A stretch of DNA of 59,651 nt, taken from positions 1-59,651 of IMG/VR virus record IMGVR_UViG_3300042332_000610. One strand, 5' to 3'. A program made the translations under genes and the position numbers. Source of the DNA: a virus. This document shows, piece after piece, positions 35,077-59,259 of this stretch. The stretch's first letter is position 1. Every line of letters begins with the position of its first letter. A model generated the notes under the pieces. That model was not told where the DNA came from, ran no database searches, and worked only from the letters and a program-made list of their open reading frames with translations.

Positions 35077-38000
35077 TTAAACCAAATATTGATCCCAAGA
35101 TATGTCATTTATTATTACAACAGAGTCCTGAGTAACATTTATAATACTGCTATCATTTACAACTCCAGAGGACAGACCAGCATAAGTATTAAAAATTTCT
35201 TTTGCATCTAAAGAAAGAATGGTTACTTCCAAAGGTTCTTCAGCTAAAACTGTTGTCCATGTTGCAGATGCAGCCTTTGTGCCCCAAGTGTAATCATCAA
35301 CAAGATTCCATTCGTCAAAAATAACCAAGTCTTGTTTAATAGGATTTAACTCCATAAAGCTTGCAACATTATCTACCTTTACTCCAGAATATATTTCAAT
35401 TTCACCAACAACTCCATCTAAAAGTATTGAATTTTCTTGTAAAGATATAGCAATATAGTTCCAAGATAGGGGTTCAATAACTATATTATTTACAAAATTT
35501 CCATTTAAAAAGAATTTGGCATTAGTAAATTCTGCACCAGTATTAGAATTAAAAATATTTAAAAAGGCTCTTCTTCCATTGCCTTCAGGGGTTAAAATAA
35601 TGTCGTACGAATCACCAGAGCCAAATATTCTACCAATTTTTTTTCTTTCAGTAAATAAGCTAGACTCGTTACACATTAAGAACATTTGCAGTCCAACTAC
35701 TTCTTGATTATCTTTTAGTGAATCGTTTATTGGAATAGCAATTCCTTTTACCAAAGTTTCATCTACAACTGGTAAAACTTCTATTCCAGAGTCCCCACTT
35801 AAATATAGATATGGAGATGATTCAGTATTAATAACCACTGGAATTTTTCTTTTATAAACATATTGATCTTCATTTTTAACTATTGGATAAAATTTTCCTG
35901 CAGCAGGAGTATTTATTGAATAGAATTGTCCTTCATCAAAAGAAAGTGAGACAAGTCCCATATTTTTAATTTTTACATTTTCTGTATTTACTCCCTTAGA
36001 AGAAATTTCAATATGAATAGTTATGTAGTAGTTAGTAAAACCAGATATATCTTTTGGTGGATAAATAATAGTTCCATCATTAATCTTATACTTGGTATCT
36101 CCTCTAGTAGCTCTACCTCCAGCAGTTGTAGAAGTTGGGGAACCTGACTCTTGTGTTAAAGTAACGGTAAAACTTGAAGAATTTGCAGTTGCAACAGTTA
36201 CTTTAGAAAGATTAAAGTTATTAGGAGAACACCCAGTAATAGTGACTATATCGCCAGCAGAAAAAGTATTGGCTGCTATAAAAGTATAAGTTCCAGCCGA
36301 ATAACTTGCACTTGTAATAGTAGTTGTAACTGGTCCAATTACATTTCCTAAATCTAAAATTCTATTCATTCCAATATTTTCTACATTTGTAAACTGAGTG
36401 TATACTACATTTCCCAGTTCAATTATGTTTTGTAATGTTATATAAACTTTTGTTGATAAAGAATCTTGATAATTTGAAGATGTTTCATTATACTTTGAAA
36501 ATATTGAGCTTGGTGTGTCAATGTTAAACTGCAATAAATCTAAGTCATATTTTAATTTACCATTAGCTTGGGTTATATATTTTCCAAAATAAGATAGAGG
36601 TATTGAATTTTCCCAATACCCTGAAGCTCCTACATCTAAAACTATTGAAGTGTTTGTTGTTTTTGGCAGCAAGGTATACGATCCAATATAGTCATAAAGT
36701 TCTGAACTAAAGTTTTTAATTGCTATTCCAGAGTTGTTAAATATTTGAGACCCGTCTTTATCTGTAAAAAAGTCATTATTAAGTGTTAAAGAAAATATTT
36801 TTCCAAGGAATGTTTGTTCCTGATTTCCCGCAAAATTTAGAGAAAGAGATTCTGGTTTTGAAAAGAAAGATCCTACAGTTGAGTAATAAGATTGCTCAAT
36901 TTTATCAAAATCAATGCCAACTGCAAAGTAAGAGCTTGCACCAACAAGTGCTGAATTTAAAATAGTTTCATTATAAATATATTGAATACTTCCAGAGTTT
37001 ATTGCTACTTCAAAAGTATTTCCGTCAAAATTATTTGAAATGTACATCAAAGATTGTCTATCTGAAACGTTATTTGAAGATTTTAATATTGAATGAATAG
37101 ACCTTGTTTGATTTCCAGTTTGATTTAATTTTGAAAAATAAATTGTTCCATAAGAATTATTTGATAAGTATGTGCCATTTGGATCCATTGAAATGTATGG
37201 ATAGTCTTCATCTTGAATTGCATAATTTTCTTCATAGAATCCTGAAGTAATTAAAGATTTTTGAAAAACTGTTGATGATGAATTGTTATTAAATATGATT
37301 TCTGGTAATTCATATTTTGGTAAAGTAATGCCTTTATTATCTGCTACAAGGTTATTATAAAATCCATCATTCCACTTGCTTCTATCTGGATATTTTATTG
37401 TAGAACTGTATCCAGAAAATGGGAAATCTACATATGACAGCGTTCCATTTTTTGATGCAATAATGTTTTCCTGTTCTTGAACACCTTGTCCAAATACATA
37501 TCTTTTCTTTGCAACCTGCTCTGCAACAACGTATGGGAATATTGAAAAAGAATCTATTTCAAAAAGATATATAAATTCATTTGTATAAAACCCTAAATAG
37601 TTTTCATCTTCTTCTGTAAAGGTTGGAATATCCAAAGATTCAATTATAATTGATATTACCTTTTCTCCATTAATCATTAAGAAGATCTCATTTTGGCTCT
37701 GGCAAAAATGAACAAGCATTGGTCTGTACCATTTTCCAATAAAATAAGACTTAGTATATTTTCCAACATTTACAGTTATAAAATCTCTATCAACATATAT
37801 TCCATCTTCTGACGCAAGTGGTCCAAATATTCTTCTTCTTGTAACTGTTTCAGGATTGATTCTTAACCAAAATTCTGTTGTAAGTGTTTTATTGTATCCA
37901 GTTTTATTCAAAAATCCTTTTCCAGGAAATACCAGAGATGGGAATTTATAATACTGTTCAGAGTCTAAGTATATAGAAGAATTTCCTCCATCAAGAAATT

Positions 38001-38904
38001 CTGCATAGGATGATGAAGCAGATCCTCCATCAAACAATAGTTCTTCTAGGGAAGACCCATCAACTAGTAGCTCATTTACACTTATGGCATCTTTATTTAA
38101 TTTAATGTTTCCAGAAGAGCCATAAACCATTGGGATAGATGATAACTTTGCAAAAAGAGAATTATTTACAGATAAAACATATCCATTGTCTGAAGCATCA
38201 TTAAAACCATAAGGATCTATAATGGTACTTTTTATTTCTCCAGGAAAGTCTATTAAAGAGCTAATTTCGTTTGGCAAGACAACCAAAGAAGCACTAGAAA
38301 TTCCAGTACTTATTGAATTATAAGGCTCAGACCATTGTGCAAAAGATACTCCATTAAAATAAACAGAAGAATTACTTTCTCCAGCAATAGTATCTGGATC
38401 ATATACCACCCTTATAAAAATGGAAAAGCTTTCTCCACCCAAGGGTTCTGTGTGTGAAATTTTTTCCCATATATTTGTTTTTAAGAATGAATATCTTGTA
38501 TAATACTCTTGCCCATCTATAATAAGTCCTATGTCTGTATATAAAATAGAAGTTTGATCAGGAATATAAATATAGCTTGACGTACATACGCTTCCCTTGT
38601 TTGGATCAAGCTGTACATAAGATATAGAAGATGATAAAGAAACTGTAAACTCTTTTATTGCAGCTGAAGCTGTAGATAGATATAGTCTGTTTACATCCAA
38701 ATCATCAAAAGGATACCCAGATAGTGTAAATGTTGCAGATGCGTTTCTACTAGCATTGTCAAAATCCCAATTAGATTCTGTTATCTCTTTTTCTTGTTGT
38801 GAAATTAAAGAAACAAAATAATTTGGCTCATCCATAGCCCACAAAGCCACTGGATGCTCTGCATAGACTCTTGAAGCATAAAGATTTGAACTTGTGTAGG
38901 ACAT
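35077..38904 (-). CDS. Large LamG-like structural/adhesin protein (1275 aa)
   Basis: A large beta-rich protein. The start (HPVALWAMDEPN, residues 17-28) and repeated strands of the form FSIFIRVVYDP, EFWLRINPETV and WNYIAISLQENSILLDG resemble concanavalin/LamG-type jelly-roll domains, probably four or more in series. Near residues 865-935 a Thr/Ser-rich Ig-like module (GDIVTITGCSPNNF) is inserted. It is not a terminase. It may be a long head or tail fibre that binds carbohydrate. GAGGT precedes the ATG, with a TGATAAAAT box behind it. Confidence 0.65.
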   Translation of the reverse strand: MSYTSSNLYASRVYAEHPVALWAMDEPNYFVSLISQQEKEITESNWDFDNASRNASATFTLSGYPFDDLDVNRLYLSTASAAIKEFTVSLSSSISYVQLDPNKGSVCTSSYIYIPDQTSILYTDIGLIIDGQEYYTRYSFLKTNIWEKISHTEPLGGESFSIFIRVVYDPDTIAGESNSSVYFNGVSFAQWSEPYNSISTGISSASLVVLPNEISSLIDFPGEIKSTIIDPYGFNDASDNGYVLSVNNSLFAKLSSIPMVYGSSGNIKLNKDAISVNELLVDGSSLEELLFDGGSASSSYAEFLDGGNSSIYLDSEQYYKFPSLVFPGKGFLNKTGYNKTLTTEFWLRINPETVTRRRIFGPLASEDGIYVDRDFITVNVGKYTKSYFIGKWYRPMLVHFCQSQNEIFLMINGEKVISIIIESLDIPTFTEEDENYLGFYTNEFIYLFEIDSFSIFPYVVAEQVAKKRYVFGQGVQEQENIIASKNGTLSYVDFPFSGYSSTIKYPDRSKWNDGFYNNLVADNKGITLPKYELPEIIFNNNSSSTVFQKSLITSGFYEENYAIQDEDYPYISMDPNGTYLSNNSYGTIYFSKLNQTGNQTRSIHSILKSSNNVSDRQSLMYISNNFDGNTFEVAINSGSIQYIYNETILNSALVGASSYFAVGIDFDKIEQSYYSTVGSFFSKPESLSLNFAGNQEQTFLGKIFSLTLNNDFFTDKDGSQIFNNSGIAIKNFSSELYDYIGSYTLLPKTTNTSIVLDVGASGYWENSIPLSYFGKYITQANGKLKYDLDLLQFNIDTPSSIFSKYNETSSNYQDSLSTKVYITLQNIIELGNVVYTQFTNVENIGMNRILDLGNVIGPVTTTITSASYSAGTYTFIAANTFSAGDIVTITGCSPNNFNLSKVTVATANSSSFTVTLTQESGSPTSTTAGGRATRGDTKYKINDGTIIYPPKDISGFTNYYITIHIEISSKGVNTENVKIKNMGLVSLSFDEGQFYSINTPAAGKFYPIVKNEDQYVYKRKIPVVINTESSPYLYLSGDSGIEVLPVVDETLVKGIAIPINDSLKDNQEVVGLQMFLMCNESSLFTERKKIGRIFGSGDSYDIILTPEGNGRRAFLNIFNSNTGAEFTNAKFFLNGNFVNNIVIEPLSWNYIAISLQENSILLDGVVGEIEIYSGVKVDNVASFMELNPIKQDLVIFDEWNLVDDYTWGTKAASATWTTVLAEEPLEVTILSLDAKEIFNTYAGLSSGVVNDSSIINVTQDSVVIINDISWDQYLV

Positions 38905-41690: not shown

Positions 41691-41696
41691 ATTATA
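41691..41696 (-). promoter_or_regulatory. -10 (TATAAT), leaderless spacing, overlapping a stop codon
   Basis: TATAAT at 41696-41691 overlaps the stop of the glycosyltransferase gene and lies exactly 6 bases before the ATG at 41684; no ribosome binding site. Confidence 0.5.
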
Positions 41697-42783
41697 ACGC
41701 AAGAATTTCTTTGCAAACTTCTTCCCAGTCATACCCTCTTTGTTTCATTGAAAACTTTTCGGATATAATTTGAAAGTTTTTATCTCTTTCTTCAAGTCTA
41801 ACTTTTGGATCTAATAATTCTTCCATATGTCCTAGCCACTCATCTGGAGTATTTGCAACTCTTCCAACTCCAGAATCAGCAAGTAGTTGATACTCTGGCA
41901 ATGCTTGTGCAATAAAAGGAATTCCAGCAGCCCCATACTCAAGACCTTTTAAATATGACTTTGCGTGATTAAATTCAACATCTCTTAATGGAACAATTCC
42001 AACATCCATTTTTCTATATAATTCTGGAACATTCATCATTGTCTTCATTGGCTCAAACGTACAATATCTTTTATCAATTCCAATTTGCTGTGCTGCAGTC
42101 GGAGCATTAATAATATTTCCTGCGTGATGAAACTTTAAATGTTTTTGTTTTAGGAATTCTCCAAAGAAAGGATTAAGAGTTTCTAGATCTCCAGATCTCC
42201 AAGGAGTTGCCCCTACCCATCCAAATTTTGGAAGAAGACCAGCGTAGTCTTTTCTTTTTATTCCCCATCTTTCAATATCAATACCATTTCTTATTAAGAA
42301 TATTGGCTTGTCTGGATATTTTTTCTGATAGAAATCTTTTAAGAATGGGGTAGATGTTACTAATGCATCTGCTTGTTCAATAATTGCAATATAGTGATCT
42401 CTATTATTATCTGGATTTGAATCTGGATGAGTTGTTTTATATGCAAGATTAGTTTCTTCAAGACCTTCCATATGATCATCAATATCAACAACAATTTTTT
42501 GACCAAGCTCTCTTGCTCTTCTAACATGGTCAACAAATCTTTTAAGCATAATTAATTTTAGAACAACTATGTCCCATCCGTGTATTGCTTTTTCATCTGG
42601 GATTAAAATACCAAAAGCATGTTCTTCGCTAAATCCTGGCAATCCAATTCCACTTTCCCAGCCATGCTCCTTCAATTGCTTCATTGGAAGGTATGCTCTA
42701 TACCAACCACATCCGTTTGGTTGTAGTGGCTTTACGCCAAATGACCAGTCATAGGTTAAAAAAGCAATTGTCGGAGTTGGCAT
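41692..42783 (-). CDS. GT-B fold glycosyltransferase
   Basis: A 363-residue GT4-like transferase. The N-terminal Rossmann half starts with TIAFLTYDW and a GWYRAYLPMKQL segment; the linker has STPFLKDFYQKKYP and a nucleotide-binding half with FGWVGATPWRSGDLE and a GAAGIPFIAQALPEYQLL loop with the donor-site glutamate. Phages use such enzymes to glycosylate DNA, virion proteins, or host surface sugars. Being in the late cluster next to fibre genes, modification of virion proteins or of host wall glycans is likelier than DNA modification, though this is inference. Confidence 0.85.
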   Translation of the reverse strand: MPTPTIAFLTYDWSFGVKPLQPNGCGWYRAYLPMKQLKEHGWESGIGLPGFSEEHAFGILIPDEKAIHGWDIVVLKLIMLKRFVDHVRRARELGQKIVVDIDDHMEGLEETNLAYKTTHPDSNPDNNRDHYIAIIEQADALVTSTPFLKDFYQKKYPDKPIFLIRNGIDIERWGIKRKDYAGLLPKFGWVGATPWRSGDLETLNPFFGEFLKQKHLKFHHAGNIINAPTAAQQIGIDKRYCTFEPMKTMMNVPELYRKMDVGIVPLRDVEFNHAKSYLKGLEYGAAGIPFIAQALPEYQLLADSGVGRVANTPDEWLGHMEELLDPKVRLEERDKNFQIISEKFSMKQRGYDWEEVCKEILAL

Positions 42784-45535: not shown

Positions 45536-45919
45536 TTATATTGAAGAATGTCTTAATTCCCAAACTAGTAAGTTTTCATTCCATACATAATAGTCTCCAT
45601 TAGAAATATCTTCAACTTCTGGCATTGGACTTGGAGGATACCATTGACAAGTATCTTCATTTAATAACCAAGATTCAAATAGTTTTGAAGGAATAAAGGC
45701 ATCTCTTATTTCATCATAATTATATCCTGGACTTGCATAGTTAAAACGAAAGCTTCCATTGTAACTAGTTTGTTTCCAAACTCCATCTAATCCAAGGGAT
45801 GCAATAAATTCTTGACCTACTATTTCGCTATCTGGAAATTCTAAATTACCAAGTGTATTGTTATCTACAACAATTACTTGTTGAACTATATTATCTTCTA
45901 TTCTTGCAAAATGAGCCAT
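45536..45919 (-). CDS. MAHF-type small fibre-associated protein
   Basis: A 127-residue protein with MAHFARIEDNIVQQVIVV, YDEIRDAFIP and a W-rich C-terminus, a family common in aquatic phage fibre clusters. It is a clear paralogue of 54565-54936 (YNYDEIRDAFIP against YSYDLDLDAFIP). Probably a fibre or chaperone-like partner; role not established. Start overlaps the upstream stop. Confidence 0.7.
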   Translation of the reverse strand: MAHFARIEDNIVQQVIVVDNNTLGNLEFPDSEIVGQEFIASLGLDGVWKQTSYNGSFRFNYASPGYNYDEIRDAFIPSKLFESWLLNEDTCQWYPPSPMPEVEDISNGDYYVWNENLLVWELRHSSI

Positions 45920-46830
45920 TATGCTAACACCCTTATTCTTGCTATTCCTGAACCGCCAGCACTGCCAGGACGACTATTAGTACCGCCACCACCGCCACCG
46001 CCAGTATTTGCAGTACCAGCAGTTGAAACTACTCCAAACCAATCACTAGATCCACTTCCGCCACCACTTGTGCCTCTGCCATAATCTAAAGAACCTGCAC
46101 CATTTCCACCGCCACCGCCAGCAAGAGAAACTGAACTACCAGTTATAAAAGTAGCAAGTCCAGCACCACCAGCACCAGCACCACCAGCAGCAGCCGCACC
46201 AGCACCACCGCCACCACCGCCTCTATTATATCCGTTTGGATAGTCACCAGTATTACCTTGACCAGATACAGCTTTAATTAAAATCTGTGTTTCGTGGCTA
46301 GATCCACCAGAAGACCCTCCATGATAACCACCCATAGCAGAAAAACCGCCTCCTCCACCGCCAACTGCAACTAAGTATCCAACAGTACCAGGTGCAGAAA
46401 TATATGTATCTCCTCCATAATTAGTATAGCTATTTCCGCCACCACTACCACCACCAATGGTTACAGTGTGCGTACCTGCTGGCAAATAAAAATTAGTTCG
46501 GTAGACGTGCCCACCAGCACCACCACCACCACCTTGAGTAGTGGCTCCACCTCCACCACCAGCAATTAACAATACATCAAGTAGACCACCTTTTGAAAGT
46601 GTAAAAGATCCACTTCCATGCCAGGTATAAACCCTATAGTAAATTCCATTATTTAAAGATGTATCTAAAAATGGTTCTGCTGGTGTAATATTTCCTACAG
46701 TAGCTAAGATATGACTGTTATTTAAAAGTCCACTAAAATTGCGAGATGGATTATTTAAATTTCCATCACCTTGACCAAACCAGCTACTTACTTGGCTTGA
46801 TGAAACTGATCGGTGTAAAGGATTAGCCAT
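45919..46830 (-). CDS. Glycine-rich tail fibre/adhesin 1
   Basis: A 303-residue protein. After an N-terminal WFGQGDGNLN region, strands (VDVLLIAGGGGG-like) and glycine-rich loops alternate, with GGGGG clusters from about 90 to the end, giving polyglycine-II-type packing typical of phage receptor-binding adhesins. One of three paralogous fibres in the window (also 54983-55705 and 58420-59259). Confidence 0.78.
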   Translation of the reverse strand: MANPLHRSVSSSQVSSWFGQGDGNLNNPSRNFSGLLNNSHILATVGNITPAEPFLDTSLNNGIYYRVYTWHGSGSFTLSKGGLLDVLLIAGGGGGATTQGGGGGAGGHVYRTNFYLPAGTHTVTIGGGSGGGNSYTNYGGDTYISAPGTVGYLVAVGGGGGGFSAMGGYHGGSSGGSSHETQILIKAVSGQGNTGDYPNGYNRGGGGGGAGAAAAGGAGAGGAGLATFITGSSVSLAGGGGGNGAGSLDYGRGTSGGGSGSSDWFGVVSTAGTANTGGGGGGGTNSRPGSAGGSGIARIRVLA

Positions 46831-47192
46831 TACGCAATCCTATTTACATAACCTGAAATCGTAATTACGTTAGTGGTAGCAGCATAGGCAGCAACTGTAT
46901 TGGCAGCACTACCAGTGCCAGTTAAAATTAAACCAGGAACAACTAAAGTTAAACCAGATGTTGCAGGAATAGATAATTTAATATCATTATCAACCGCTGT
47001 TGTTCCACCAAATTGAATTGTTAGTGCTACTGTAACTGATGAAGAATTATATGCATATAACCAAATTTCATCTTCTATTGTTGCTGATGTTCCAGTAGCG
47101 TGAATAGTTGTTCCAGCTGAGGCAGTAGCAGCAACTTTAATTGCTTTACCTTGTGTTGAACCTGAAAGAAGTACTTTAGAATAAGTCGCCAT
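46830..47192 (-). CDS. Small beta protein 1 (paralogue of 57414-57776)
   Basis: A 120-residue beta-rich protein: TTIHATGTSATIEDEIWLYAYN, NDIKLSIPATSG and NVITISGYVNRIA line up with the gene at 57414-57776. It lies just before a glycine-rich fibre, so it could be the attachment or trimerising partner. The ATG follows TATAAT by exactly 6 bases and has no ribosome binding site. Confidence 0.72.
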   Translation of the reverse strand: MATYSKVLLSGSTQGKAIKVAATASAGTTIHATGTSATIEDEIWLYAYNSSSVTVALTIQFGGTTAVDNDIKLSIPATSGLTLVVPGLILTGTGSAANTVAAYAATTNVITISGYVNRIA

Positions 47193-47206: not shown

Positions 47207-48997
47207 TTATCCAAAAATCTGCCCTGGCAAAATAAACTGATCAGATTCTCCGTTTATACTATCTAAAGCTGCAGTTGTTGCATACGTTGTAGATGCTGAA
47301 GACTGTGTAAGATACAGGGAAAGATCTAAAGTTCCCCACGAGGCTACTGAACCATCTGTAGTTAGATAATTTCCAGCATTTCCAGCTTGAGATGGTAATG
47401 CATCTATGTTATCTAAGTCTACTTGTGTTGCATATATTGTTGAAGCATTTATTTGGGTTAAATATATAGAAGAAGCAGAAGATTGAGTTAAATAAGGAGT
47501 TAAATCTTGGGCTGCACTTGAAGTTAAAATAATTTCACCATTTGTATCATCATAAGTAGCTGTAATATTTGAATGATTACTATGTGTGAATAATGTAGAT
47601 GCATAGTCTTGTACTTGATCTTCAGTTAACCCGTCAATAATTCCATTTACTTCAATCCAATATGTTCCATCGTAAATAAGAAATGATCCAGTAGATTGCT
47701 TGTACCAAGTATCTCCCAAAACTGGTGCTGCTGGAGCAGTTTCAGAAACAGTAGTTGTAGCACCACCACCACCTTCACCACCCGAAATTAATTGATTTAC
47801 CCAAGCACCTGATGCTGAGTTCCAAACTAAAGATTGTAAATTACTTAATGAATTTATTTCAACATTTGAAAGACTATCTAAAGAATGATTATGAGAAGAT
47901 TCTGAAAGACCTGCTTCTGCTGCCGTTTGATTAATCCATAAATTAGTTGATAAATCATATGCTAATAGTTCATTATTTTGAACAGATGCAGAAATTAAAA
48001 TGTCGTGAATATCTTCTAAATGACCCCCACTTGATGGTCTTACAAATAAAATACCAGTTGTCTGATGACGAATTATAATAATTGCAACTACAATAGCATG
48101 TGTTGGTTTTATGTTTGTTAATTTTCCTGGAACAGTTGGATGAACGTATAAGATATCTCCAGCAGCCCAGGTTTCATCTCCAACGCTTATTGCAGTTGAA
48201 GAAGTTCCTCTTGTATCTAAATTTGATACATATCCAAAGTGTTGAACAAATCCATTAACTCCATTATTAATACTTTCTGTTGCAAGACCCATAAATCTTA
48301 CTTCTCTTACAGATCCATCTGCTACATATGGAGTTACTTGTATTCTTCCACTTGATTCAACTCCAGATGCATACAGGGCAGTTCCTTTTGATATTGTAGA
48401 ACCAGTTGAATTTCTTACTCTGTATACTGACTCTTCTCCAAGGTGTATATGTTTTGTGGATGATAGTCCAAGATTTAATGTACCTTCAACACTGTCCCAT
48501 CCAAGTAATCCAGTTACTGGAGTAATATTTGCAGTTGTATCAAATTGAATAAAATCTGGGGATGAAATAGAATCAATAGATACTAAAGATCCACTAGTAC
48601 TTAAATTAATAACATTATTTATATCGTCATAAACTGCTGTAATATTTGTAGTACTAGCACTTGTAAATAAAGGGGCAACATAATCTTGAACTTGTTCTTG
48701 TGAAAGACCTTCAATTACTCCATTTACTTCTACCCAATAAGTTCCATCATAAATATAAAATTCACCAGTATCATTTTTATACCAAGAATCCCCGATTTCT
48801 GAAGATTCTGGTTCTGTTGTACTAACAGTGGTAGTACCACCACCGCCACCACCTGCACCAAGGACTGACCAAGCTCCTGCTTGGTAAATCTTTGCAACGG
48901 ATGCTGAAGTATTAAAGTATAGTTCTCCCTCGGATCCAACTGTAGGATCTGAAGGTAGATTAACTATCTTTAAAGTACTTAAAAATTTCTTTGCCAT
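47207..48997 (-). CDS. Tail fibre with internal duplication (596 aa)
   Basis: A fibre with MAKKFLSTLKI start. Residues about 55-135 (GDSWYKNDTGEFYIYDGTYW and following) are repeated near 412-495 (GDTWYKQSTGSFLIYDGTYW). The end carries the LPSQ...YLTT..GSVASWGTLDLSLYLTQ module shared with other fibres. A glycine-rich spacer precedes each duplicate. AAGGAA precedes the ATG, and a terminator from the preceding gene lies just upstream. Confidence 0.75.
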   Translation of the reverse strand: MAKKFLSTLKIVNLPSDPTVGSEGELYFNTSASVAKIYQAGAWSVLGAGGGGGGTTTVSTTEPESSEIGDSWYKNDTGEFYIYDGTYWVEVNGVIEGLSQEQVQDYVAPLFTSASTTNITAVYDDINNVINLSTSGSLVSIDSISSPDFIQFDTTANITPVTGLLGWDSVEGTLNLGLSSTKHIHLGEESVYRVRNSTGSTISKGTALYASGVESSGRIQVTPYVADGSVREVRFMGLATESINNGVNGFVQHFGYVSNLDTRGTSSTAISVGDETWAAGDILYVHPTVPGKLTNIKPTHAIVVAIIIIRHQTTGILFVRPSSGGHLEDIHDILISASVQNNELLAYDLSTNLWINQTAAEAGLSESSHNHSLDSLSNVEINSLSNLQSLVWNSASGAWVNQLISGGEGGGGATTTVSETAPAAPVLGDTWYKQSTGSFLIYDGTYWIEVNGIIDGLTEDQVQDYASTLFTHSNHSNITATYDDTNGEIILTSSAAQDLTPYLTQSSASSIYLTQINASTIYATQVDLDNIDALPSQAGNAGNYLTTDGSVASWGTLDLSLYLTQSSASTTYATTAALDSINGESDQFILPGQIFG

Positions 48998-54564: not shown

Positions 54565-54936
54565 TTAGGAAGCTGTTTCTTCAGGAGTCATTAATTCCCA
54601 ATCTATTAAATCTTCATTCCAAACATAATATGATCCCTCTGGAACTTCACTTGGATAAGGGACTGGAGATTGCCATTGGCAAACAGTTTCATCTAATATC
54701 CAGGAATTAAATGGTTTTGGTGGAATAAAAGCATCAAGATCTAAATCATATGAATACCCTATACCAGCATAGTTCTTTCTAGTATTTCCATTATATGAGG
54801 TACGAATACAAGTTTGATTTCTAAAATTACCATACCAGATTTCTGGGGATAATTCTTCAATTAATTCTGTTTCATCAATGCCAACAATAACTTCAGTTAC
54901 AATGTTGTTTTCATCTAAAAATGCATAATGTGCCAT
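54565..54936 (-). CDS. MAHF-type small fibre-associated protein, copy 2
   Basis: A 123-residue protein, paralogue of 45536-45919 (shared SYNGNTRKNYA against SYNGSFRFNYA, FNSWILDETVCQW, and YYVWNEDLIDWEL). Leaderless-type start: TGATATAAT 6 bases before the ATG, with TAGACA 17 bases further upstream. Confidence 0.72.
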   Translation of the reverse strand: MAHYAFLDENNIVTEVIVGIDETELIEELSPEIWYGNFRNQTCIRTSYNGNTRKNYAGIGYSYDLDLDAFIPPKPFNSWILDETVCQWQSPVPYPSEVPEGSYYVWNEDLIDWELMTPEETAS

Positions 54937-54982: not shown

Positions 54983-55705
54983 TTATGCTACAAAAGTTCC
55001 GTTTGTTGTAAATGTATGATAAGTAAATCCGCCACCAGAAGATACAGTTCCACCTGTTCCTCGTTGTGTACCTGAGTAACGTACTATAACAATGCCACCT
55101 GTACCAGACTGTTGGGAACCACCACCATGACCATATCCTGATGCTGTAGAACCGCCACCATTGTTTGAACCACCTGTACCACCAATGGCATAAGTAACTC
55201 CTAGTGATTTCCAGTTAGTTCCTGGTCCACCTGCACCACCACTAAACTGGTTTGTGCTTGTGCCTACACCAGCAGAACCACCGCCACCACCTGAAGCACC
55301 ACTAACCGCTGCTTGGAAACCACCAGTTCCACCTGCATAACCTTGTCCAGCAGTACCTTGACCAACTGCACTACCATGGTTTCCAGAACCACCAGAGCCA
55401 CCAGTAGTACCACCAGTTCCACCACCAATAGCGGTTAAAGTAAAACCAGTTGTGTTACTACCGTTAGAACTGCCAACTCCAGCAGCACCAACAACAAAGG
55501 CATAACTGTTTCGTGCATTTACTGTTTGCACACCCTGCAGTAAACCACCAGCACCACTAGCAGCACCATTGCCAACAGAACTACCACCACCAGCAACTAA
55601 TAAATAATCAATTTCGTAAGCCACTCCTGGAGATGAATCAAAAGCCCTGCTGACCTTTGGCATTCCCTGACTAATGCTTGACTTATTAAAAAACTTAACA
55701 GCCAT
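54983..55705 (-). CDS. Glycine-rich tail fibre/adhesin 2
   Basis: A 240-residue protein. AVKFFNKSSISQGMP start, then glycine clusters with strand tips (YAFVVGAAG, FTLTAIGGG, GIVIVRYSG) like the other two glycine-rich fibres. GGAGAT precedes the ATG, which overlaps the stop of the small beta protein upstream. Confidence 0.78.
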   Translation of the reverse strand: MAVKFFNKSSISQGMPKVSRAFDSSPGVAYEIDYLLVAGGGSSVGNGAASGAGGLLQGVQTVNARNSYAFVVGAAGVGSSNGSNTTGFTLTAIGGGTGGTTGGSGGSGNHGSAVGQGTAGQGYAGGTGGFQAAVSGASGGGGGSAGVGTSTNQFSGGAGGPGTNWKSLGVTYAIGGTGGSNNGGGSTASGYGHGGGSQQSGTGGIVIVRYSGTQRGTGGTVSSGGGFTYHTFTTNGTFVA

Positions 55706-56035: not shown

Positions 56036-56515
56036 TTATCCTCCCATCAATAAAAACGGATGTACTGTATTTTGTTCTATTATACCAGGTATAGAAGCAG
56101 ATGTTGCATATAAAGATAGGTCTAGAATTCCCCAAGATGCTACTGATCCACTTGTAGTTAGATATTTTCCATCATTTCCTGTTTGGGATGGTAGTGCATC
56201 TATATTATCTAAATCTGTTTGTGTTGCATAAATTGTCGAGGCAGAAGATGCTGTAAGATATTCAGAATAATCTGTTGGGGCTCCAGATATTTCTACCCAA
56301 TATACAGAATCATACATAAATAATTCATTTGTATCTGTATCAAACCATAGTTGTCCTTCTCCAGGAGAAGCTGGGGGATTAGAAGATATTGAAATGCTAG
56401 GAGTGAATTCATCTACATATTCAGTAGTTGCATATCCAGTTAAATCTGGAGTACCAGAAACTAGGGGAAGCCAATTTATTCCATCACTTATATATGCTTT
56501 TTTAGCATTTGGCAT
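56036..56515 (-). CDS. Modular fibre protein (LPSQ module)
   Basis: A 159-residue fibre piece. GQLWFDTDTNELFMYDSVYW, YLTASSASTIYATQ and an LPSQTGNDGKYLTTSGSV module shared with 47207-48997 and 57803-58375. GGAGG at 11 bases, with an extended -10 upstream. Confidence 0.72.
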   Translation of the reverse strand: MPNAKKAYISDGINWLPLVSGTPDLTGYATTEYVDEFTPSISISSNPPASPGEGQLWFDTDTNELFMYDSVYWVEISGAPTDYSEYLTASSASTIYATQTDLDNIDALPSQTGNDGKYLTTSGSVASWGILDLSLYATSASIPGIIEQNTVHPFLLMGG

Positions 56516-56553: not shown

Positions 56554-56601
56554 TCTTAGTTATATTGTATTAGTAAAAGTTATTTAATTAGTAATATTTA
56601 A

Positions 56602-57414
56602 CTATCTAACAAATATCCAAGCTGTGTGATCTGTAGTAGTTCCATCATTGCTATAAATTCTTGCAGAATCATCTCTTGCTAAATTACCTCTCCAGGTATA
56701 TGCTATGGTATTATCAACTCTTGCAGCAATACCACCAGTTGACTCTTGAGATATTGGCGTTGAAGCAATTCTTGCACCATCATTAATTAAGCTATAGTTA
56801 AACATAAGAGTGTTTGAACTAAAGGAAGAGCTACCATTTGTCATTGAATCTCCAGAAGCTCCTATAATTGAAGAAACATCACTAACGTATGAAGTATTGT
56901 TTGCTCTTGCAAATCTATTTAAAAATGTATCTTGACTACTTAACCTATATCCTTTATATCTAATAGATCCATTAAAATTTTCTCTAATCATCATATCTTG
57001 AAATGAGTATGATGTAAATGCAGGAAGCCTAAAATTAGCTTTATTAGATAAAGAGTTTGCTACAGATATATTTAAATTATTACCTGATGCTGCAGTAAAC
57101 CAGTTTGTTCCAGTACCATAATCTCCCTCAAGCCAGGTAGTTATATCTCCAGTAAAATTTGTAACACAAAATGCTAACAACCATCCACCACCAAGAGTAT
57201 TCATATCGCACCAGACTTGATGCTTTGTTGAGTCTCCAGATGGTAGTTGTATGTAGTATGCTCCATCATCTACTACACCTTCAGTATTTTTTAAAAACAA
57301 TGCACTTGGTGCTGGATTATCAATTGTCCCAAATGGTATGGACTCTCTAATTATTTTTGTAGACCCATGCCAATTAGAAACTTTACTTCCTACAAAAGTT
57401 CTATTTCTAAACAT
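56602..57414 (-). CDS. Fibrinogen-like (FReD-type) receptor-binding protein
   Basis: A 270-residue protein. After a short tail-attachment start (MFRNRTFVGSKVSNWHG), residues 50-90 read GAYYIQLPSG, VWCDMNTLGGGWLLAF: the opening of the fibrinogen-related/intelectin fold (Cys in CDM, GGGW). A second nearby cysteine is C83. The remainder is Ser/Asn-rich with NWFTAASGNN and WRGNLARDD. In animals this fold binds glycans; here it probably contacts host surface sugars. AGGAT precedes the ATG, overlapping the upstream stop. Confidence 0.7.
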   Translation of the reverse strand: MFRNRTFVGSKVSNWHGSTKIIRESIPFGTIDNPAPSALFLKNTEGVVDDGAYYIQLPSGDSTKHQVWCDMNTLGGGWLLAFCVTNFTGDITTWLEGDYGTGTNWFTAASGNNLNISVANSLSNKANFRLPAFTSYSFQDMMIRENFNGSIRYKGYRLSSQDTFLNRFARANNTSYVSDVSSIIGASGDSMTNGSSSFSSNTLMFNYSLINDGARIASTPISQESTGGIAARVDNTIAYTWRGNLARDDSARIYSNDGTTTDHTAWIFVR

Positions 57415-57776
57415 TAGGTAATCCTATTTACATAACCTGACAAAGTTATAACGTTTGCAGATGATGCATATGCATATACTGTTGTTGATGCTGAACCAGT
57501 TCCTTTTAGCAATAGTCCAGGAAGTACTAACACTAGTCCAGATTGTGAAGGAATTGATACTTTTATATCGTTATCTGGTGAAGATGTTCCAGCGTGTTGA
57601 ACTGTTAATATTGAAGATGTTGAGGCTGAGTTATAAGCATACAACCAAATCTCATCTATTGTTGAAGCAGATGTGGTAGTTGAGTGAATTGTTGTTCCAG
57701 TAGATGATGTTGCTACAACTTTTATTGGAGCACCATTTGTACTTACTGATAAAAATTCTTTTGTATATGTAGCCAT
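57414..57776 (-). CDS. Small beta protein 2 (paralogue of 46830-47192)
   Basis: A 120-residue beta protein: MATYTKEFLSVSTNG, TTIHSTTTSASTIDEIWLYA, and NVITLSGYVNRIT match 46830-47192 closely. It directly precedes the fibrinogen-like gene, as its paralogue precedes a glycine-rich fibre, suggesting a shared attachment partner with swappable receptor binders. Leaderless-type start (TATAAT 7 bases upstream). Confidence 0.72.
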   Translation of the reverse strand: MATYTKEFLSVSTNGAPIKVVATSSTGTTIHSTTTSASTIDEIWLYAYNSASTSSILTVQHAGTSSPDNDIKVSIPSQSGLVLVLPGLLLKGTGSASTTVYAYASSANVITLSGYVNRIT

Positions 57777-57783
57777 ATTATAT

Positions 57784-57789
57784 ATTATA
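57784..57789 (-). promoter_or_regulatory. -10 (TATAAT), leaderless spacing
   Basis: TATAAT with 7 bases to the ATG at 57776. No good -35. Confidence 0.45.
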
Positions 57790-57802
57790 CCTCATTTTTA
57801 TT

Positions 57803-58375
57803 TTATCCCATAAACATAGATGAAGCAATTATTGCTTGTGGATCATCTACTGCAGAACCTAATTGAACCCAGGAAGATCCGTTATATGTTTTTAAAGCTG
57901 GTGGACTTGTTGAAGAATCTACCCATAAGTCTCCAGTTGCTGGAGTTGATGGAGTAGAAGAGGAATATGGAATTAATTTTTCATATTGAGTAGATGCTGA
58001 TGATTGCGTAAGATAAAGACTTAAATCTAAAGTTCCCCAACTACTTACAGATCCAGAAGTAGTTAAATATTTTCCACCATTTCCATTTTGAGAAGGAAGA
58101 GTAGCAGATTCTGGGATATTTGAAAAATAGTTATTATCTCCATCCATTACTTTATTTGTTAGTATTTGATATCCAGAGGCTGTTGCATAAGTTATTTCTT
58201 CAATTACCTCGTTTGAATCTACCCAAATAAATCCTGGCTCGTGATAGTCTGGCTCTGTTGCTGAATAAGTAAAAGGCTTCCAATTCTCACCAATAATATT
58301 CCAAGACTCTCCATCAAAAGCATAATCTTGAAATTGTTGTCCAACAGAAGCGGATAGTGGAAAAATTGTAGCCAT
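57803..58375 (-). CDS. Modular fibre protein (LPSQ and WVQLGS modules)
   Basis: A 190-residue fibre. MATIFPLSASVGQQF start resembles 53964-54503; LPSQNGNGGKYLTTSGSV, YLTQSSAST and WVDSSTSPPALKTYNGSSW modules follow. Extended -10 TGATATAAT 9 bases before the ATG. Confidence 0.72.
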   Translation of the reverse strand: MATIFPLSASVGQQFQDYAFDGESWNIIGENWKPFTYSATEPDYHEPGFIWVDSNEVIEEITYATASGYQILTNKVMDGDNNYFSNIPESATLPSQNGNGGKYLTTSGSVSSWGTLDLSLYLTQSSASTQYEKLIPYSSSTPSTPATGDLWVDSSTSPPALKTYNGSSWVQLGSAVDDPQAIIASSMFMG

Positions 58376-58419: not shown

Positions 58420-59259
58420 TTATGAGAATGTTACTGTTCCTGTGCCAGCAGTAATACTGGTAACTTTAAATCCACCAGAAGGTGATGCAGTTGTTGCTGT
58501 TAATCCAGAAGTAGTTACTGTGTAAGCATCTGGATATTTTAAGATTATAATTCCTGAACCTCCATTACCATTAGCCCCACCACCACCAGAACCTGAGTTA
58601 GCTGTTGCATTTGGAGATGCTGGAAAACCAGAACGATATCCGTTATCTAGCCTTCCTCCTCCTCCTGCATATCCTAAGCTTGTGCCAGAAATAGAACTTA
58701 AAATTCCGTTACCACCATTACCAGCAACTCCACTCACTCCATTAGATCCAGCTGTTCCTGCTCCACCACCACCACCTGCTGCATCATCATTTCCTGCAGA
58801 TCTTGCCCCACCTTGATTACCTTGACCAGCAGTTCCTGGTGCGTTATTTGGAGCAGTTCCACCACCACCAGTACCTCCTTGTCCTCCACCAGAACCACCT
58901 GAAGATCCTGAAGATCCAGCACCACCACCAGCACCTCCGCCAGCAATAGTTGTTAGTCCAATACCTGTTGTATTATTTCCATTTCCACCTATTGCCCAAG
59001 GACCATCAAATCTATTTGATGTAGAACCCGATGGTCCTCCTGCACCAATAGTAATTGCATAAGAGCTTGTAGCTAAAGAAGTAGATCCTTGAAGCAAGCC
59101 TCCAGCACCACCACCTGCGAACTGTGGACTGCTTCCTCCGTGTCCTCCACCGCCACCTCCAGCAGCTATAAGATACTGAACACTAAGTGGTGGACGACTA
59201 CTATTTTTTCTTGTACCAAGAACTCCAAGAGTTCCGCTAACACTATTTAAAAATGGCAT
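58420..59259 (-). CDS. Glycine-rich tail fibre/adhesin 3
   Basis: A 279-residue protein. VQYLIAAGGGGGGH, then alternating glycine-rich loops and strand tips (YAITIGAGG, GIIILKYPD), with a C-terminal VTSITAGTGTVTFS strand. Same family as the two others. AGGAGA precedes the ATG. The gene lies after the partial fibre at the right edge. Confidence 0.78.
   Translation of the reverse strand: MPFLNSVSGTLGVLGTRKNSSRPPLSVQYLIAAGGGGGGHGGSSPQFAGGGAGGLLQGSTSLATSSYAITIGAGGPSGSTSNRFDGPWAIGGNGNNTTGIGLTTIAGGGAGGGAGSSGSSGGSGGGQGGTGGGGTAPNNAPGTAGQGNQGGARSAGNDDAAGGGGGAGTAGSNGVSGVAGNGGNGILSSISGTSLGYAGGGGRLDNGYRSGFPASPNATANSGSGGGGANGNGGSGIIILKYPDAYTVTTSGLTATTASPSGGFKVTSITAGTGTVTFS

What the first reader, a model, noticed from the sequence alone, without database searches (positions are those of the whole stretch)
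56602..57414. Fibrinogen-related (intelectin/ficolin-like) domain in a phage fibre
VWCDMNTLGGGW matches the start of the fibrinogen-related fold, known as a glycan-binding lectin in animals. In a phage this would be a carbohydrate-specific receptor binder in an unusual setting, paired with the small beta protein at 57414-57776.
Basis: partly seen in the sequence, partly recalled or inferred. Interest (0 to 1): 0.6.

Follow-up and report, generated by a model that had tools for sequence, protein, structure and literature searches.

The report
Swappable fibrinogen-like tip on phage fibre
A virus of lake or sea bacteria carries, at the end of one of its attachment fibres, a protein that begins like animal fibrinogen-type lectins and sits in a slot where close relatives carry a different tip, so it is probably an exchangeable part that decides which cell surface the virus sticks to.

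Summary
In detail: 56602-57414 (minus strand) is an intact 270-aa ORF with VWCDMNTLGGGW at residues 67-78. It passes NCBIfam's cutoff for the 'fibrinogen-like YCDxxxxGGGW' domain and misses Pfam Fibrinogen_C by half a bit. Only part of the fold is shown: residues 21-90 plus the last strand (261-270) are modelled confidently, and the 50 best Foldseek matches are fibrinogen-related domains. The middle (about 94-256) is unmodelled and matches nothing. A Phi-Phi-Arg/Lys end, shared by 21 of 27 sequence-unrelated phage clusters (2% of other ORFs), suggests one domain running to the stop codon.

The setting is less rare than proposed: at least 119 viral contig stretches and several isolated phages carry the motif, unnamed. 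The stronger result is the anatomy. Residues 1-20 are an anchor shared with tips that are otherwise glycine-rich or LamG-like and follow the same small protein; none of 62 such loci showed a FReD. In a near relative (portal 97% identical) the same slot holds another small protein and a glycine-rich tip, with homology resuming at the FReD stop codon. Best reading: an exchangeable receptor-binding tip of an actinobacterial siphovirus. Sugar binding is untested; the animal disulfide is absent.

The parts
56602..57414 (-). FReD-type tip protein, 270 aa (P0001)
57355..57414 (-). N-terminal anchor, residues 1-20 (MFRNRTFVGSKVSNWHGSTK), shared with other tips
   Evidence: anchor profile 19.2 bits, E 5e-5; best of the shuffles 7.4
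57160..57327 (-). FReD N-terminal core, residues 30-85, including the CDM/GGGW motif at 57181-57216
   Evidence: NF040941; pLDDT 85-93 in blocks 31-80; Foldseek to ficolins and intelectin
56605..56631 (-). closing C-terminal strand, residues 262-270 (DHTAWIFVR)
   Evidence: block pLDDT 73 and strand 264-269; same Phi-Phi-R/K end in 21 of 27 other phage clusters
57414..57776 (-). small protein, 120 aa, phrog_30535; overlaps the tip gene by one base; beta-type judged from sequence pattern only
57803..58375 (-). 190-aa adapter/shaft protein opening this three-gene cassette
56036..56515 (-). 159-aa adapter of the next cassette; homology with relative G001 resumes at 56600, at the FReD stop codon
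55705..56034 (-). second type of small protein (109 aa), next cassette
54983..55705 (-). glycine-rich tip of the next cassette; overlaps its small protein by one base
46830..47192 (-). paralogue of the small protein (120 aa, 66% identical)
45919..46830 (-). paralogous tip with the same anchor (MANPLHRSVSSSQVSSWFGQ) but a Gly_rich_2 body
   Evidence: (50.8 bits)
47207..48997 (-). 596-aa fibre shaft opening the paralogous cassette
58420..59259 (-). glycine-rich tip of the upstream cassette (Gly_rich_2)

Best explanation
The ORF encodes the receptor-binding tip of one of several tail fibres of a siphovirus that probably infects aquatic actinobacteria. Residues 1-20 are an attachment peptide that docks the tip to the fibre, most likely onto the small beta-type protein made from the overlapping upstream gene (docking inferred). 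Residues about 25-270 form a fibrinogen-related-type domain: a conserved N-terminal core and a closing C-terminal strand frame a fast-changing middle that contacts the host surface, plausibly a wall or capsule polysaccharide (ligand inferred). The small protein and the tip are exchanged as one unit between phages, which replaces a glycine-rich tip with a FReD tip or the reverse and would change adsorption specificity (exchange shown by synteny, consequence inferred).
For: Domain: NF040941 over cutoff. The model is confident for 21-90 and the last ten residues, and the 50 best Foldseek PDB matches are all fibrinogen-related domains, H-ficolin first; VIA-align spans up to 26-270 on ficolins and intelectin at Z about 6. 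A profile of 59 phage relatives (P0001 included) matches PDB FReDs at E down to 5.5e-17, with procollagen C-propeptides, to which VIA-align also points, as the only other group. Bodies of 27 mutually unrelated phage clusters end Phi-Phi-R/K in 21 cases against 2.3% background, and P0001 ends WIFVR. Anchor: a profile of 23 tips from other phages finds the P0001 N-terminus at 19.2 bits, best of the shuffles 7.4, and the window's own glycine-rich paralogue at 50.8. Slot: relative G001 (portal 97%, RNR 94%) is homologous at 58413-58004 (91%) and 56600-55695 (74%), but between these holds a different small protein and a glycine-rich tip. Context: tape measure, minor tail and portal genes and many fibre-like genes; DNA polymerase and portal 51-52% identical to Streptomyces phages.
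Against: Residues 94-256 are mostly unmodelled (pLDDT mostly 27-50) and match no other phage FReD body better than shuffles. Body-only profiles of four phage clusters match no solved FReD, so the full fold is not shown even for the family. Foldseek E-values are no better than 4e-3, and VIA-align Z values are below 8. No ligand site can be named, and the animal disulfide is missing. Nothing shows that the protein is in the virion.
Confidence: 0.68

Rival explanations
1. Only the N-terminal 60-70 residues are FReD-derived; the rest is an unrelated domain attached behind a reused starter core, so the protein is not a FReD as a whole.
For: No sequence link of the body to any FReD; the middle is unmodelled.
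Against: The last strand is modelled together with the N-terminal core as in FReDs, and the closing signature recurs in 21 of 27 otherwise unrelated clusters. Phage FReD bodies are mutually unrecognisable across clusters, so lack of similarity is the norm in this family and not evidence of a foreign domain.
Confidence: 0.22
2. The protein is a structural or decoration part of the virion (fibre cap, trimerisation or stability knob) that does not recognise the host.
For: No ligand evidence; several tips coexist in one phage.
Against: Tips and their small proteins are the exchanged parts while adapters and neighbouring genes stay 65-97% identical, the pattern expected of receptor binders. A variable island with tail fibre and collagen-like genes, suggested to relate to host recognition, is described in isolated freshwater actinophages (PMC10202952).
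Confidence: 0.1
3. An assembly chimera joined an unrelated FReD gene into this contig.
For: The contig is a metagenome-derived record, and no other contig shows this junction.
Against: Anchor and FReD lie in one uninterrupted frame with a one-base overlap to the small protein, the same junction as in other cassettes of the window. G+C of the gene (about 32-34%) matches its neighbours outside glycine-rich genes.
Confidence: 0.03

Closest known systems
NCBIfam NF040941 GGGWT_bact (bacterial fibrinogen-like YCDxxxxGGGW domain)
   Same: N-terminal core with CDM and GGGW, above the curated cutoff; 58 of 59 aligned members match it, P0001 included
   Different: the model covers only 46 positions and says nothing about the body or the anchor
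Animal fibrinogen-related domains (ficolins, intelectins, tenascin, fibrinogen beta/gamma; PF00147)
   Same: core motif, predicted N-terminal subdomain and a returning C-terminal strand
   Different: Pfam score half a bit under cutoff; disulfide partner absent; no cysteine after residue 83; body not alignable; calcium and ligand sites not identifiable
GGGW-motif 'hypothetical proteins' of cyanophages (S-ShM2, S-RIM14, S-CAM4, P-TIM40) and Actinomycetia phage DSL-LC01
   Same: same core; in S-ShM2 and DSL-LC01 the gene lies near fibre- or collagen-annotated genes
   Different: 28-36% identity over a third to a half of P0001 at best; no other viral FReD ORF tested carries this anchor
Modular phage tail fibres and adhesins with a conserved N-terminal anchor and exchangeable C-terminal tip (e.g. 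T4-type glycine-rich adhesins; from general knowledge)
   Same: conserved short anchor, variable tip, exchange among relatives
   Different: tip is a FReD-type domain, exchanged together with a separate small protein gene

Membership tests
GGGWT_bact (NF040941) | score over curated cutoff for the YCDxxxxGGGW domain | tested here: met
   36.3 bits against 30
Pfam Fibrinogen_C (PF00147) | score over gathering threshold | tested here: not met
   21.5 bits against 22; not filed under this Pfam family
FReD fold | N-terminal core with C-terminal strand returning to it | tested here: met
   strands 51-55, 65-70, 78-85 and 264-269; block pLDDT 80-93 and 73; the 50 best Foldseek matches are all FReDs
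FReD fold | complete central subdomains | tested here: inconclusive
   residues 94-256 below confidence; control phage FReD with 32 aligned sequences also failed
Ficolin / intelectin lectins | disulfide between the CDM cysteine and a cysteine about 30 residues upstream (feature from general knowledge of fibrinogen gamma) | tested here: not met
   P0001 has cysteines only at 69 and 83; 68 of 77 phage relatives have no cysteine 20-45 residues upstream either; position 38 is Ala
Ficolin / intelectin lectins | calcium and carbohydrate-binding residues | tested here: inconclusive
   body not alignable; no cysteine after residue 83
Ficolin / intelectin lectins | measured sugar binding | not testable with these tools
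   needs expressed protein
Anchor-plus-variable-tip phage receptor-binding proteins | conserved N-terminal anchor with different tips | tested here: met
   23 distinct anchored tips elsewhere: 22 glycine-rich, 1 LamG-like; P0001 anchor E 5e-5
Anchor-plus-variable-tip phage receptor-binding proteins | exchange at a syntenic slot among close relatives | tested here: met
   G001 against window 56600-58004
Anchor-plus-variable-tip phage receptor-binding proteins | location at the tail tip and receptor binding | not testable with these tools
   no virion data; uncultured phage

The most novel reading that the evidence does not exclude
In phages the fibrinogen-related fold acts as a frame: a conserved N-terminal core and a conserved closing strand hold bodies so diverged that 27 clusters cannot be linked to each other by sequence. 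Actinophages load this frame onto a short anchor and swap it against glycine-rich and LamG-like tips, making it a general, evolvable recognition scaffold.
Probability: 0.35. Interest if true: 0.6.

Novelty: new variant of a known kind. Interest (0 to 1): 0.42.

Why it matters
Fibrinogen-related domains are textbook animal recognition modules, yet phage versions are common and annotated only as hypothetical proteins. This window shows one placed on a defined anchor in a slot where a near relative carries another tip, which makes receptor exchange in uncultured aquatic phages testable and gives a sequence rule (core, body, Phi-Phi-R/K end) for finding more such tips.

Tried and rejected
Close relatives of the whole protein: none in viral contigs or species genomes; the P0001 body matches no phage FReD cluster above shuffles. 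Control model of the largest phage FReD cluster (32 sequences) failed (mean pLDDT 43), so a missing middle in P0001 is not evidence against the fold. Body-only profiles against solved structures: no FReD hit; hence the long alignments are read as driven by the N-terminal core. Special FReD/small-protein pairing rejected. Small protein by sequence against solved structures: only a weak PapE pilin hit, E 0.0055, not used. Literature: seven searches listed no paper on phage FReDs; subscription papers are not covered. NF040941 did not ring in eight related contigs, but its control genomes did not ring either, so that search alone does not show absence; the direct protein search agrees.

Full report
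OBSERVATION. The named ORF exists exactly as described: 56602-57414, minus strand, ATG, 270 aa. The motif VWCDMNTLGGGW is residues 67-78. It is a true family match, not chance: NCBIfam NF040941 (fibrinogen-like YCDxxxxGGGW domain) gives 36.3 bits against a curated cutoff of 30. Pfam Fibrinogen_C gives 21.5 against 22. The nearest solved sequences are lamprey serum lectin and Xenopus intelectin, E about 1e-3, over 38-97 residues.

HOW FAR THE FOLD IS SHOWN. AlphaFold2 with 58 viral relatives is confident for residues 21-90 (most blocks at 80-93) and for the last ten residues (73), and has no confidence for 94-144, 153-248 and 250-256. The 50 best Foldseek matches in the PDB are all fibrinogen-related domains, H-ficolin first (E 4e-3, probability 1.0). 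VIA-align aligns ficolins and intelectin end to end with the model (Z about 6, below its level of clear significance), with procollagen C-propeptides alongside. So the N-terminal subdomain and the returning last strand are supported; the central part is not. Sequence says the same: the P0001 body is a singleton and stands out from shuffles against none of the body clusters that could be scored. This is the norm, because twelve sampled members also show chance-level median similarity to the rest, and body-only profiles of four clusters find no solved FReD. What does recur is the end of the protein: 21 of 27 clusters end in Phi-Phi-R/K against 2.3% of 1475 other ORFs (the background includes some non-genic frames). 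P0001 ends WIFVR. I read this as one domain whose frame is conserved and whose middle is not.

HOW COMMON IT IS. CDMxxxGGGW occurs in at least 119 stretches of viral contigs (scan stopped at its limit), and a looser search gave 96 relatives. Isolated cyanophages and Actinomycetia phage DSL-LC01 carry it under 'hypothetical protein'. The setting is therefore not unusual; it is unnamed.

THE CASSETTE. The window is a 59.7-kb virus record, possibly a fragment, with DNA polymerase and portal 51-52% identical to Streptomyces phages, tape measure and minor tail genes, and a long cluster of short fibre-like genes. Many of these fall into repeats of adapter or shaft, small protein, tip, with the tip start overlapping the small protein stop by one base at 57414, 55705 and 46830. 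The small protein 57414-57776 is phrog_30535 and has relatives in 62 viral loci. In many of them the next ORF starts with a form of M..P..R..SSSQVS.W and continues into a glycine-rich or, once among 23 distinct anchored tips, a LamG-like body. A profile of 23 such N-termini, window excluded, finds the P0001 N-terminus (MFRNRTFVGSKVSNWHGS) at 19.2 bits, E 5e-5; the best of the shuffles scored 7.4. It finds the window's own paralogous tip at 45919-46830 at 50.8 bits. No other viral FReD ORF tested exceeds 2.6 bits. None of the 62 loci gave a FReD match in the P0001 search.

EXCHANGE. Record G001, portal 97% and ribonucleotide reductase 94% identical to the window, lacks a FReD match. DNA homology covers window 58413-58004 (91%) and resumes at 56600-55695 (74%), at the FReD stop codon. 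Between them the window has the phrog_30535 protein plus the FReD tip; G001 has a small protein of the other type plus a glycine-rich tip. In G003 (RNR 99.9%) the cluster is rearranged again. The exchanged unit is therefore small protein plus tip, with junctions inside or at the end of the adapter gene and at the tip's stop codon.

MECHANISM. Shown: domain core, anchor, cassette, exchange. Inferred: the anchor docks on the small protein or the fibre; the tip binds a host surface structure; exchange shifts host specificity. A variable island holding tail fibre and collagen-like genes, suggested to relate to host recognition, is reported in isolated freshwater actinophages (PMC10202952), which fits. 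A sugar ligand is plausible but rests only on what animal FReDs do; the animal disulfide is absent here (A38). That the phage is a siphovirus of actinobacteria is inferred from its nearest named relatives, which are only about 51% identical.

VERDICT. Confirmed observation, partly supported interpretation. A FReD-type phage tip is a member of a domain family that is known but goes unnamed in phages; its combination with this anchor and its precise exchange against glycine-rich tips is, in the sequences searched here, a new variant of the known modular-fibre principle. Literature coverage was limited to open-access papers.

Noticed in passing
54565-54936 and 45536-45919: Paralogous proteins of the MAHYAFLDENN type that follow tip genes here and in relatives G001 and G003; possibly tip assembly factors.
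   Followed up: no
41692-42783: Likely glycosyltransferase (Glyco_trans_1_4, just under cutoff) between the fibre cluster and ribonucleotide reductase, 90-95% conserved in relatives.
   Followed up: no
35077-38904: 1275-aa protein without any Pfam or PHROG match at the thresholds used, 83-85% identical in relatives over its first 855 residues, with a length difference near residues 855-929.
   Followed up: no
L259 1911-2798: A phage FReD directly preceded in the same frame by what looks like the end of a glycine-rich domain (GGNGGKGIVIVRY): both tip types in one protein.
   Followed up: no
47278-47395, 56074-56191, 57979-58096: DNA repeats (68-74%) inside the adapter and shaft genes that could serve as crossover sites for cassette exchange; one lies at the G001 breakpoint near 58004.
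   Followed up: partly
viral FReD ORFs: The CDM cysteine is kept in 55 of 57 cases although its animal disulfide partner is mostly missing and the search pattern did not require it.
   Followed up: partly
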